From the NCBI GenBank assembly GCA_010093605.1, contig MU004184.1:825897-889896 (forward strand): 64,000 bases of DNA, in the 5' to 3' direction. Source of the stretch: Lophium mytilinum (taxonomy: Eukaryota; Ascomycota; Dothideomycetes; Mytilinidiales; Mytilinidiaceae). The translations under genes were made by a program, and so were the position numbers. Below the pieces are notes generated by a model that searched no databases, had not been told where the DNA came from, and saw only the letters and a program-made list of their open reading frames with translations. Within the stretch, counting starts at the first letter, position 1. Every line of letters starts with the position of its first letter. Of the stretch, positions 6,833 through 29,186 are shown one piece after another.

Positions 6833-7913
6833 TTAGTTCTCCTCACGCTTGGTCTTGCTGCAAGATTGGCCGGGAAGATGGCAACCCGCTGGGGGGCGGG
6901 CCTCGGCGGCAGCCTCAGCCTCACGCTTTTCCTTGGAGCAAGATTGACCGGGGAGATGGCAACCCGCTGGTCGGCGGGCCTCAGCCTCGGCGGCAGCCTC
7001 AGCCTCACGCTTTTCCTTGGAGCAAGATTGACCTGGGAGATGGCAACCCGCTGGGGGACCAGCCTTGGCGGCAGCCTCAGCCTCACGCTTTTCCTTGGAG
7101 CAAGATTGACCTGGGAGATGGCAACCCGCTGGGGGGCCGGCCTTGGCGGCAGCCTCAGCCTCACGCTTTTCCTTGGAGCAAGATTGGCCTGGGAGATGGC
7201 AACCCGCCGGCGGGCGTGCCTCAGCGGCAGCTTCAGCCTCGCGCTTTTCTTTGGAGCAAGATTGGCCTGGGAGATGGCATCCTGCTGGGGGGCGTGCCTC
7301 AGCGGCAGCTTCAGCCTCGCGCTTTTCCTTGGAGCAAGATTGGCCGGGGAGATGGCATCCTGCTGGGGGGCGTGCCTCGGCCGCGGCGATGGGCTCAGGA
7401 TCTAGATTAGATCAGCTTAACGCTTCTCTTCCTGCTGCAAGATTGACCAGGAAGATGACAACCCCAAAATTTTCTGGTGGCCACAGGCTCAGGGTCTGCC
7501 ACGGGTTCAGCCTCGCGCTTGTCCTTGCTGCAAGACTGGCCCGGAAGATGGCAACCCCAGAACTTTCTGGCGGCCTCAGGCTCAGGGTCTGCCACAGGCT
7601 CAGCCTCGCGCTTGTCCTTGCTGCAAGACTGGCCTGGAAGATGGCAACCCCAGAACTTTCTGGTAGGAAGGGGTTCGGGCTCAGGGATGGGCATAGGCTC
7701 AGCCTCGCGCTTGTCTTTGCTGCAAGACTGGCCTGGGAGATGACAACCCCAAAATTTCTTACCAGCTACGGCGACGGGCTCCGGAAGAGCCGCACGCTTG
7801 TCCTTGCTGCAAGACTGGCCTGGGAGATGGCAACCCGCTGGGGGGCCGGGGATCGCGAGAGCGTGGGCGCTGGCAGCTAGGATAGCGGCGGCGATGACGG
7901 CGGTGAACTTCAT
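6833..7913 (-). CDS. ppg1: alpha-factor-like mating pheromone precursor, 12 peptide copies
   Basis: Secreted precursor of the alpha-type sex pheromone. It starts at 7913 with a signal peptide (MKFTAVIAAAILAASAHALA). Exon 1 (7422-7913) carries five copies of GCHLPGQSC, the last four preceded by KFW. Copies end in KR, the Kex2 site. If exon 1 is read through, it stops at 7407, giving a 168-aa protein. A 46-nt intron (7376-7421: GTTAAG donor, CTAAT branch-like site, GAG-type AG acceptor) joins it in frame to exon 2 (6833-7375), which carries seven more copies and ends at a TAA, for 344 aa in total. Spacers in exon 2 are strings of X-Ala or X-Pro dipeptides, the signature of Ste13-type dipeptidyl aminopeptidase trimming. 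The peptide resembles the Aspergillus fumigatus pheromone WCHLPGQGC (from memory). Alternatives to the intron are a fixed frameshift or a separate, headless tandem copy. Confidence 0.9.
6878..7357 (-). repeat. 78-bp tandem repeat array, class B pheromone units
   Basis: Seven units at a regular 78-bp period, with one of 84 bp that has an extra Glu-Ala. Each encodes PAGCHLPGQSC, SKEKR, then EAEAAA-type spacer. Units differ by only a few bases, which suggests recent homogenisation. Confidence 0.9.
7440..7830 (-). repeat. 87-99-bp tandem repeat array, class A pheromone units
   Basis: Five units spaced 87, 99, 93 and 93 bp. Four have a Lys-Phe-Trp before the GCHLPGQSC core, with a dibasic RK or KK just before the Phe. 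The N-terminal-most unit instead has PPAG, like class B. Confidence 0.85.
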
Positions 7914-8052
7914 GTTGATTGGTATCGAGGGAGTGTGTTTGAAAAAGTGAGTGATGAAGAGTTTGTCTTCGTGTAATGAGTGGTGTGTCTGTCGGAAGAG
8001 AGGGACTTGAATGATCTGGATGAGTTAGAAGTCGAGGAGCAGCGTAGAAAGG

Positions 8053-25999: not shown

Positions 26000-26913
26000 G
26001 GCAAGATGTATGTACCTGATGATGTCTTGATGGAGATGGAAGCGCGAAGACTCTAGCTGACTAGAGATAGCACTGGTGGTGCTTATGTATCCCCAGGCAT
26101 CAACTTCAAACGTCCCCGCAGGTGCCGCGACTCGGGCGTATGCGTGCTGCAAGGATGACGAGTCTTCGCAACTGCGGCCGTATCAGGGATGCTGTAGTGT
26201 AGCCCTATTGGTGTATGCAGCCAGTCAGGAGAGGGAGCCAGGTGGGCAGTGCATCGCGTCTGGCTTCGGCCGCAACGGCCGTAATTCCTCCTCATCACGC
26301 TACTGACTGATCGACAGCGTTCAAGAAGGCTTAACTCCTACGTCTCACTACATAGCTATGTACTTAACTTCTCGAAAGCCAGTCAGGTTACCGGCGCAAA
26401 CTTCTTTCGCAACGAGTGGTTGTTCTTATTGATTAGTATCAGAGTCAATCATGATCAGAAGTCTTCTAGCTGCCAGCCCGCATCTCTACCTCAATGCTGG
26501 GACGCGACCAAACCCCAAGGCTATGTACACTTGATGTAGATCCCAATCCCAGTGCTAACTCAAAATGACTCCACTTCCGAGCCTGGAGAAATTTATATCA
26601 GCACGTGATATCCACTTGTCAAGAAATCATAAGCGTTCGCTGAATACTCATGATGGTAGGTGCACGAAGTACGAAAGTTAGAATACTCTCTTCGATCCTG
26701 ACCAGTAAATCCATAACATCAGTAGTCATACCTCAGTATCTTCAAACCGCCCAAAACGTAATGATCAAGACATACTCCGAGAGGTGCCCTAATAAGCACA
26801 TAAATGCAGAAACATTAGCCAAATCCTTATATAACGCCCCAATCACCAATATTATAAATCCACAGACATTAGGGTATCAGAGTCTACATCACAGCTCCCT
26901 CCTCCCATCTCGG
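26000..26913. other. intergenic, no supported gene
   Basis: 5' flank of the gene at 25999 and 3' flank of the astacin gene. AT-rich toward 26,700-26,880. No gene, repeat or motif recognised. Confidence 0.5.
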
Positions 26914-28412
26914 TTAATAACACATCGGCTCCTCAACCACCTCCGTACACCCATCCTTCCCAAGCTGAAACGCATCACAAAGCTGATTACACGCCACGCC
27001 CGGCTTCACAAACACTCTTCCCTCCTGTCCCACCCACGGCAGCCTCACCTGCACGTTGTTATCCTTCGGATCGGTCCAGTCGGCCCTGAAACCGTGCCTG
27101 CACGCACACAAATGCTCTCCAGCCCCCCCGCTCGCCGCGCCAGTGAGCGAGATGCACGACGTGCTGATATCGCAGCCGTTCGCGCCGGGCGTGGGGTCGC
27201 AGGTCTGGAGTGGGCAGGTAGGCGTCTCGATCTTGCAGTTAGCCGAGCAGCCGTCGCCGTCGATGTTGTTCCCATCATCGCATTCCTCGCCGTTGTTGGG
27301 GGAGAGGATCCCGTCGCCGCAAACGCCCCTGCAGTCTTCCCAGTAGATGTCGCAGATGCGGCGGGCGTCGGTCAGCGTGGGGAGGTTGTGCCACTGCGGG
27401 GACGGGACGCCAGACTTTGGCATAAGCGTAGGTAGGCCATTCTTGCTGAACTCGTACATGGAATAGTGCATAATGGAGAGGACGTCGTAGGCCCCGGCCC
27501 AGTCGGCTTCGGTGACGGAGTTGATGCGGAAGTTGCAACCTAGGCCCTGGCATGAGGCTGAAGTTCGTCGAAGCTTCGAGTCCGGACCCACAGATCAAGT
27601 CAGGGGTGATAACTTTGAGGAGTACCACTGGCACTGGTAGCTGCACCAGTCCGGTCGGGATGAGTACAAGTACAGTCTGGAACTACATCAAGCTGGACGA
27701 CTGTGGTCCTGGTGGCTACGCGCACGAGATCGGTCATAGTAGGTCCCAACCCTCATCATCTCCTAAGCCACGCATACTGACTCATCCCCAGCGCTCGGCC
27801 TCATCCACGAACAACAACGTCCCGACCGGGATTCCTACATGGACCTCCACTGCGAAAACGTCTCCGACGACGACAACGGCGTCAAAGCAGTATGTGGCGG
27901 AACGGTAGTCTGTCCGTCCACCTCTCTACACCCTCAGTCCAATCGGCAATCCGAAAGTCTTTTGAGGCTTGGGATTCCCACTTGTAGTAGATGACGCCAC
28001 CCGGCCATTTGTTGCCTGAGTATGGGAAGATCGAGATCGAGCGTTTGTGTATGCTACCAGCGTGGGGATCTTCGACTGCACGCTTGTTGTGGCCGCCTAC
28101 GGCCCAAGATAGAAGCTCGGCCTCTGACCCAAATATGACGTCTCCGTCGACGATTGCAATGCCATCTTCAACGTAGTAAGACAGGCGCTGCGTCACTGGG
28201 GGGATGGTGAAGTTATTGCTGGAGTCGTTGAAGGCAAGAATGCCAGGGGAAAGCTCGATGTTGATTGTGGAGACGTTGTGGATGGGCTGGTAAATAAAGG
28301 TTGAGTTCGTCAAGTTTTGAGCCACCACAGACGAAATCAAGGGTAAGGCCGAAAGCAACGCAACGGAAAGAGAAAACATACTAAGCACGGCTAGAGAGAT
28401 TATACTATGCAA
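26914..28412 (-). pseudogene. secreted astacin-like metalloprotease split by an internal inversion
   Basis: Zinc endopeptidase of the M12A family, in three blocks. Block 1 (27918-28412, minus) has a signal peptide (MHSIISLAVLSMFSLSVALL), a propeptide ending in a KR site, and the domain start KWPGGVIYYKWE. Block 2 (27552-27917) lies on the plus strand and holds the catalytic zinc motif HEIGHTLGLIHE, split by a 53-nt intron (27739-27791). Block 3 (26914-27551, minus) has the Met-turn SIMHYSMYE and a Cys-rich tail with a DUF4215-type repeat (NGEECDDGNNIDGDGCSANC). As it stands, the gene cannot encode the active site. With block 2 in the other orientation, frame phases match at both joints and the family order is complete (481 aa). 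This may be a real inversion or an assembly error. Confidence 0.85.
27552..27917 (+). other. inverted 366-bp segment of the astacin gene
   Basis: Plus-strand reading gives LKFVEASSPDPQIKSGVITL, then the zinc motif and RPDRDSYMDLHCENV, all parts of an astacin domain whose flanks read on the minus strand. The splice sites inside it (GTAGGT donor, CCCCAG acceptor) also work only on the plus strand. I see no long inverted repeats at the ends. Confidence 0.85.
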
Positions 28413-29186
28413 GCGGAAATAATTGGAATCGATGACTGTGGAGGTCTGCTAGGAGCCTCCTTATACTATTGATCCAAACACCGCTCCTCTGGAGATCTCC
28501 GTCTAGTGGAGGCATATGGAGAGATGGCTGAGCAGGCGCAGCCCGACTCGTGACTTTGATGCATTTGTTTCGGGTCATTGTGGTTGCCCAGCAAGCTCCA
28601 AGAGCGTCGAAGCCTCCACAGAGCCGGTTAAATTCAGAGGAAAGGTTTGAGGGGAACGAGAAGGCAGCAGAGCTCAGGCAGCGCAGCCTATCACACAGCG
28701 CCTGTATTCTCTTCAGCCACCTCTGAACGACTTGGCAGTAAAGCGATTCGGCAAATAGAATTAGAGTTGATAGCCAAGAAAAGCCGGCAGACTGCTTGAA
28801 AGAGAAACCGCGCTAAACTTAGAAAAGTGGCTGAATAGAGTATCGATGAGAGGTTCCAAAAAGCTTCAGCCTCTCCACACAGCGTGACACTTCACGAAAG
28901 CTGAACCACCTTTCTTGCACACGGCCTGGATGGCTACCTTAGCCTCGTACGATAGCCTGTTGCGCGTTTATTTAGTCGACGCCTGCTCGGAAAGAAAGAC
29001 ATGCGGCTGAGGTATATCTGCTTGCAGCTGCTGACTGCAAGCACCGAGAATCGTTTACTTACTCATATTACGACGGAGGAAACCCAGGACTTGAGGTTCC
29101 ATGATTTGCTCGCCTCCGTTGTCATACTAGGACTTACGAATTATCCTTACGTGTTTGATGCTTTCAGGTTTGATATCGCAGTCAAG
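28413..29186. other. divergent promoter region
   Basis: Lies between the astacin gene (-) and the MARVEL gene (+). The MARVEL frame is open back to 29001, but the upstream part lacks family character. Nothing else seen. Confidence 0.5.

What the first reader, a model, noticed from the sequence alone, without database searches (positions are those of the whole stretch)
27552..27917. Exact 366-bp inversion of the catalytic segment in an astacin gene
Signal peptide, propeptide and domain start read on the minus strand. The zinc motif HEIGHTLGLIHE, with its own intron, reads on the plus strand. The Met-turn and Cys-rich tail again read on the minus strand. Taking breakpoints at 27551/27552 and 27917/27918, codon phase agrees at both joints with no base lost. 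Such a clean event points to a recent inversion, an invertible segment or an assembly artefact. If alleles in both orientations exist in a population, it would be an on/off protease switch, which would be unusual in a fungus.
Basis: partly seen in the sequence, partly recalled or inferred. Interest (0 to 1): 0.75.

Follow-up and report, generated by a model that had tools for sequence, protein, structure and literature searches.

The report
Fungal protease gene with flipped middle
In this fungal DNA one secreted-protease gene has about 360 bases of its middle turned round, which splits its active site between the two strands and should kill the gene; it is most likely a fresh one-off inversion or an assembly error, not a switch.

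Summary
The window looks like a filamentous ascomycete (organism not named by any search). One astacin gene (Pfam PF01400) lies in three pieces: N-terminal part on the minus strand (27918-28379), zinc-site part with a 53-nt intron on the plus strand (27552-27917), Met-turn and Cys-rich tail on the minus strand (26914-27551). Searched apart, two of four pieces hit Pfam Astacin in order (exon 2: 89-115, E 1.7e-5; tail: 130-161, E 1.6e-4), and all four fall in order on a profile of four bacterial astacins, two of them weakly. At the first joint the register is gap-free, columns 33 then 34. That fixes the sum of the breakpoints, not each one; the profile prefers breaks 3-6 bp further in, so 354-360 bp fits better than 366.

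None of the inverted repeats found sits at both ends, so a recombinase or repeat-mediated switch has no support. The 469 codons read hold no stop, so the event is recent or not biological. I favour a recent end-joining micro-inversion that nulls the gene (0.58), assembly error second (0.33). Reads would decide; none are held.

The parts
27918..28379 (-). Piece A: start codon, leader, propeptide and start of the astacin domain (KWPGG...); reads on into the flipped segment and then stops at 27882-27884
   Evidence: open frame; gapless placement on profile columns 3-33, 20.1 bits, next best -4.2 of 19 placements; no Pfam hit
27552..27738 (+). Piece B exon 1: up to HEIGH; the true left end of the flipped segment is probably 27555-27558
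   Evidence: profile 50-88, E 0.0047; break placement; no Pfam hit
27739..27791 (+). Intron, 53 nt, phase 1, inside the zinc motif; GT...AG with ACTGAC branch-like site at 27776-27781
   Evidence: sequence; fungal splice consensus is recalled, not from a call
27792..27917 (+). Piece B exon 2: LGLIHEQQRPDRDSYM and what follows; the true right end of the flipped segment is probably 27911-27914
   Evidence: Pfam Astacin 89-115/189, E 1.7e-5
26914..27551 (-). Piece C: SIMHY Met-turn, end of the astacin domain, DUF4215 Cys-rich module, stop codon
   Evidence: Pfam Astacin 130-161/189, E 1.6e-4, and DUF4215, E 4.6e-7
27552..27558 (.). Left breakpoint zone
   Evidence: no inverted partner at the other end
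27911..27917 (.). Right breakpoint zone
   Evidence: no inverted partner at the other end

Best explanation
A secreted astacin-type metalloprotease gene of a filamentous ascomycete carries a recent micro-inversion of about 354-366 bp. Two breaks fell inside one exon stretch on each side of the catalytic segment, and the segment was rejoined in the other direction with little or no homology and no net gain or loss at the first joint. The event puts the zinc-binding helix and its intron on the wrong strand, so a transcript from the gene's own promoter runs into a stop soon after the first joint (27882-27884) and cannot make an active protease: a loss-of-function allele. Shown: three collinear pieces on alternating strands, register, absence of end repeats, absence of stops. 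Inferred: that the event happened in the organism, that it was end joining, that it is recent, that the allele is null.
For: Pfam and profile order of the separately searched pieces. Gap-free register at joint 1: piece A ends at column 33; the head of piece B has its second-best of 179 placements at column 34 (5.2 bits), the best in the first 99 columns, with one better elsewhere (7.3 bits at column 116). 469 codons without a stop: under neutrality and stops alone, divergence of 0.0145 would leave a 50% and 0.063 a 5% chance of that. Canonical intron on the plus strand. No second copy of the pieces in the window. No N in the window. Inversions among isolates of one fungus are reported: 111 of 1828 structural variants, the variants ranging from 30 bp to over 10,000 bp, in Fusarium circinatum (PMC9316270, passages).
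Against: No reads, no second isolate and no fungal orthologue could be examined, so an artefact gives the same picture. Small real inversions often carry a few lost or added bases (recalled); a clean flip is just as expected of an artefact. Joint 2 could not be tested for register. The codon-usage model supports pieces A and C on the minus strand in total (12.9 and 12.1 bits) but is weak or slightly negative for exon 1 (-0.9) and favours a plus frame over part of the C-terminal tail.
Confidence: 0.58

Rival explanations
1. Assembly or processing artefact: the organism has an ordinary uninterrupted minus-strand astacin gene, and a piece of about 360 bp was placed in the wrong direction in the sequence record.
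For: Clean flip with no net change at the first joint, no stop in 469 codons, intron intact: all expected if the gene is in fact whole. No reads to contradict it.
Against: No repeat at the ends that would confuse an assembler, no N in the 64 kb, unique sequence within the window. Long genes elsewhere in the window match their profiles nearly end to end (DUF3405 7-492 of 493, Fungal_trans_2 6-365 of 384), so there is no sign of general scrambling, though only 20 ORFs were checked.
Confidence: 0.33
2. A programmed or recurrent invertible segment that turns the protease on and off in the population.
For: The gene is otherwise intact and in register, so the other orientation would be open. Fungi do have inversion switches: Sclerotinia MAT, a 3.6-kb inversion between 250-bp inverted repeats (PMC3574095, abstract); Hansenula polymorpha MAT (PMC4238957, search listing and start of abstract only).
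Against: No inverted repeats or shared site at the ends; no recombinase among the 20 ORFs scanned by Pfam. The breaks lie inside codons of a conserved domain, not at gene borders.
Confidence: 0.03
3. An older or multi-step rearrangement (for example inversion plus small loss, or template switching during replication) in a gene already under no selection.
For: The second joint could not be checked for lost or added codons; piece A and exon 1 match the bacterial profile only weakly.
Against: No stop in 469 codons; joint 1 in register.
Confidence: 0.06

Closest known systems
Astacin family metalloproteases (MEROPS M12A, Pfam PF01400), fungal secreted type with C-terminal DUF4215 module
   Same: WPGG domain start, Cys pair, HExxHxxGxxH zinc site, SIMHY Met-turn, in the family's order; PDB relatives include crayfish astacin, BMP1 and zebrafish/medaka hatching enzymes
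   Different: The zinc-site stretch lies on the opposite strand to the rest; extra Cys-containing stretch between exon 2 and the Met-turn; as it stands no complete astacin is encoded
Micro-inversions within genes (small non-repeat-mediated inversions)
   Same: A few hundred bp, no repeats at the ends, sequence content kept
   Different: Falls inside a coding region and in register; whether it is a real event is not shown
Sclerotinia sclerotiorum MAT inversion (PMC3574095, abstract)
   Same: An inversion in a filamentous ascomycete that truncates a gene
   Different: That one is 3.6 kb, lies between 250-bp inverted repeats and recurs each meiotic generation; here there are no repeats and the size is a tenth

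Membership tests
Astacin (PF01400) | Zinc motif HExxHxxGxxH | tested here: met
   HEIGH / LGLIHE across the 53-nt intron, plus strand; Pfam 89-115, E 1.7e-5
Astacin (PF01400) | Met-turn SxMHY downstream | tested here: met
   SIMHY, minus strand; Pfam 130-161, E 1.6e-4, 21.9 bits, just under the 22.5 cut-off for that piece alone
Astacin (PF01400) | Both on one strand in one reading frame, giving a whole catalytic domain | tested here: not met
   Strand switches at 27552-27558 and 27911-27917; the gene is an astacin gene by descent, not a working astacin as it stands
Astacin (PF01400) | Secreted proenzyme with leader and propeptide | tested here: inconclusive
   Hydrophobic start and KR sites seen by eye in piece A; no predictor run; no Pfam or PDB match for piece A
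Site-specific or repeat-mediated invertible segment | Inverted repeats at both ends | tested here: not met
   0 of 6 inverted pairs has arms at both ends; 11 of 60 positions alike, longest shared word 10 nt and internal
Site-specific or repeat-mediated invertible segment | Both orientations exist in one population or culture | not testable with these tools
   No reads, no own genome, no isolates held
Site-specific or repeat-mediated invertible segment | Recombinase gene nearby | tested here: inconclusive
   None among the 20 long ORFs scanned with Pfam; the rest of the window's ORFs were not scanned
End-joining micro-inversion | No or minimal homology at breakpoints, content kept | tested here: met
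   Single-base agreements only at the ends; gap-free register at joint 1; joint 2 untested
End-joining micro-inversion | Present in the organism's DNA | not testable with these tools
   Needs reads or PCR

The most novel reading that the evidence does not exclude
The segment flips repeatedly in this fungus without flanking repeats, so that a culture holds both a silent and an open form of a secreted protease gene: a repeat-free inversion switch in a eukaryote.
Probability: 0.03. Interest if true: 0.8.

Novelty: new member of a known kind. Interest (0 to 1): 0.3.

Why it matters
If real and recent, it is an unusually clean case of a sub-kilobase inversion caught before any other damage to the gene, useful for studying how such events arise by end joining in fungi, and a null allele of a secreted protease whose family is reported as expanded or retained in plant-pathogenic Pezizomycotina (PMC3087541, passages). 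If an artefact, it is a warning that automatic annotation would report either no astacin or a truncated one here. Either way the practical value is modest.

Tried and rejected
Recombinase switch: rejected for lack of end repeats. A 12-bp palindrome just inside the left end was noticed by eye; about 0.6 such are expected in 2.5 kb (my estimate), so it was not pursued.

Two overlapping antisense genes instead of one flipped gene: rejected because the pieces are collinear on one family profile.

Looking for orthologues: the one scan of bacterial and archaeal contigs gave one locus, L001, which on reading is another metallopeptidase (HEIGHTLGLPH) and was dropped. Two viral-contig scans gave nothing, a phage search nothing. 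A family search in 396 genomes gave 10 with Astacin matches; only L002, which matches profile 1-186, was used, the other nine (L003-L011) match in part and were dropped. Of four plasmid hits three were fetched and used (L012-L014); the fourth, annotated as an injected effector of Legionella, was not fetched. No fungal relative is in any collection I could search.

Codon-usage model: too weak to be decisive; pieces A, C and exon 2 positive (12.9, 12.1, 3.6 bits), exon 1 slightly negative (-0.9), and part of the C-terminal tail scores as well or better in a plus frame.

First motif script found no frame in any locus with its patterns; repeated in six frames with a looser motif, giving 9 of 10 loci.

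Literature: intragenic inversion with fungi, one paper, on fish mitochondria; astacin with DUF4215, none; small inversions with fungal and assembly errors, three papers; microinversions with end joining, one, on Drosophila. These cover only the open library.

Full report
What the sequence shows. The window has 64,000 bases, 52.8% G+C, no N. Pfam hits of 20 long ORFs include Fungal_trans_2, MutS domains I-V, DUF3405, Sgf11, ABC transporters and a class-I tRNA synthetase; with short introns this fits a filamentous ascomycete. No call names the organism, and no whole genome is held.

The locus. On the minus strand from 28379 an open frame gives a hydrophobic leader, a propeptide with KR sites and the astacin domain start KWPGG; it runs into the segment in question and stops at 27882-27884. 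On the plus strand from 27552 a frame leads to HEIGH, an intron of 53 nt (27739-27791; GTAGGT, ACTGAC, CAG) and LGLIHEQQRPDRDSYM. On the minus strand from 27551 down to 26914 follow SIMHY, the rest of the domain, a DUF4215 module and a stop.

Is it more than chance? Each piece was searched apart. In Pfam, exon 2 of the plus-strand piece matches Astacin 89-115 (E 1.7e-5) and the minus-strand tail 130-161 (E 1.6e-4, 21.9 bits against a cut-off of 22.5) and DUF4215 (E 4.6e-7); piece A and exon 1 match nothing up to E 1. In the PDB the spliced plus-strand piece matches 13 chain sequences at E up to 0.01, astacins, BMP1/tolloid, hatching enzymes, meprin; the tail matches pappalysin through its Cys-rich module and astacin weakly, E 0.4-0.7; piece A nothing. 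A profile of four bacterial astacins (L002, L012, L013, L014) places all four pieces in order: A 3-26 (E 0.016), exon 1 50-88 (E 0.0047), exon 2 89-115 (27.1 bits), tail 124-163 (27.5 bits). One astacin gene with its middle reversed is the simple reading.

How exact is the flip? The prior chance of agreement is about one in three, so phase alone is mild evidence. A stronger test is register. Without gaps, the end of piece A lies on columns 3-33 (20.1 bits; next best of 19 placements -4.2). The first ten residues of piece B score best at column 116 (7.3 bits) and second at column 34 (5.2 bits), out of 179 placements. Column 34 directly follows column 33, so joint 1 has no codon missing or extra; this fixes L+R but lets both ends slide inward or outward together. 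The inversion is thus best given as 27555-27558 to 27911-27914, 354-360 bp, with 366 bp not excluded. Joint 2 lies in a stretch that the references lack and could not be tested.

Mechanism. None of six inverted pairs in 26500-29000 has arms at both ends. The end contexts agree at 11 of 60 positions, with single-base agreements only at the breakpoints; the longest inverted word shared by the 300-bp contexts is 10 nt, lies inside the segment and is matched or exceeded by 12% of 300 random placements. This speaks against recombination between repeats and against a site-specific switch of the usual kind, and for end joining of two breaks if the event is biological. The 469 codons read hold no stop; with stops alone, neutral divergence of 0.0145 per site gives a 50% and 0.063 a 5% chance of that; with an assumed indel rate, 0.0043 and 0.019. 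So the event is recent, or it never happened in the cell.

Real or artefact? For real: no repeats to mislead an assembler, no N, no second copy in the window, and other long genes near full length on their profiles. For artefact: the flip is clean, the gene otherwise intact, and no read, isolate or fungal relative could be examined. I put a real recent micro-inversion at 0.58, artefact at 0.33, older or multi-step events at 0.06, a switch at 0.03. These odds are judgement.

Consequence. As the sequence stands, no full astacin can be made: the zinc helix is on the other strand. The allele would be null. Astacin families are reported as gained, expanded or retained in plant-pathogenic relatives (PMC3087541, passages), so the gene was treated with care: its pieces were searched apart and no rejoined reading was made.

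Known parallels. Fungal inversions that work as switches, such as the 3.6-kb Sclerotinia MAT inversion between 250-bp repeats (PMC3574095, abstract), differ in having repeats. Inversions are ordinary among isolates: 111 of 1828 structural variants in Fusarium circinatum (PMC9316270, passages). The finding is therefore a new member of a known kind.

Noticed in passing
6833-8024, minus strand: A gene that looks like an alpha-type mating-pheromone precursor: 12 copies of GCHLPGQSC between KR sites, 5 in the frame of 7407-8024 (one PPAG, four FWG) and 7 in the frame of 6833-7411 (tandem repeats of 93 and 78 bp). Two spacer types and a change of frame or an intron near 7407-7411. The likeness to ascomycete alpha-pheromones is recalled, not from a call.
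   Followed up: partly
27552-27908, plus strand: The flipped piece happens to begin with an ATG (27552-27554) in the astacin frame, so a short plus-strand peptide with the zinc motif could in principle be made if transcribed; no evidence that it is.
   Followed up: no
L003-L007 (unnamed bacterial genomes): A family of bacterial proteins with HEIGH(T/A)LG(L/M)xHEH that matches only part of the Astacin profile; looks like a distinct branch of the metzincins.
   Followed up: no
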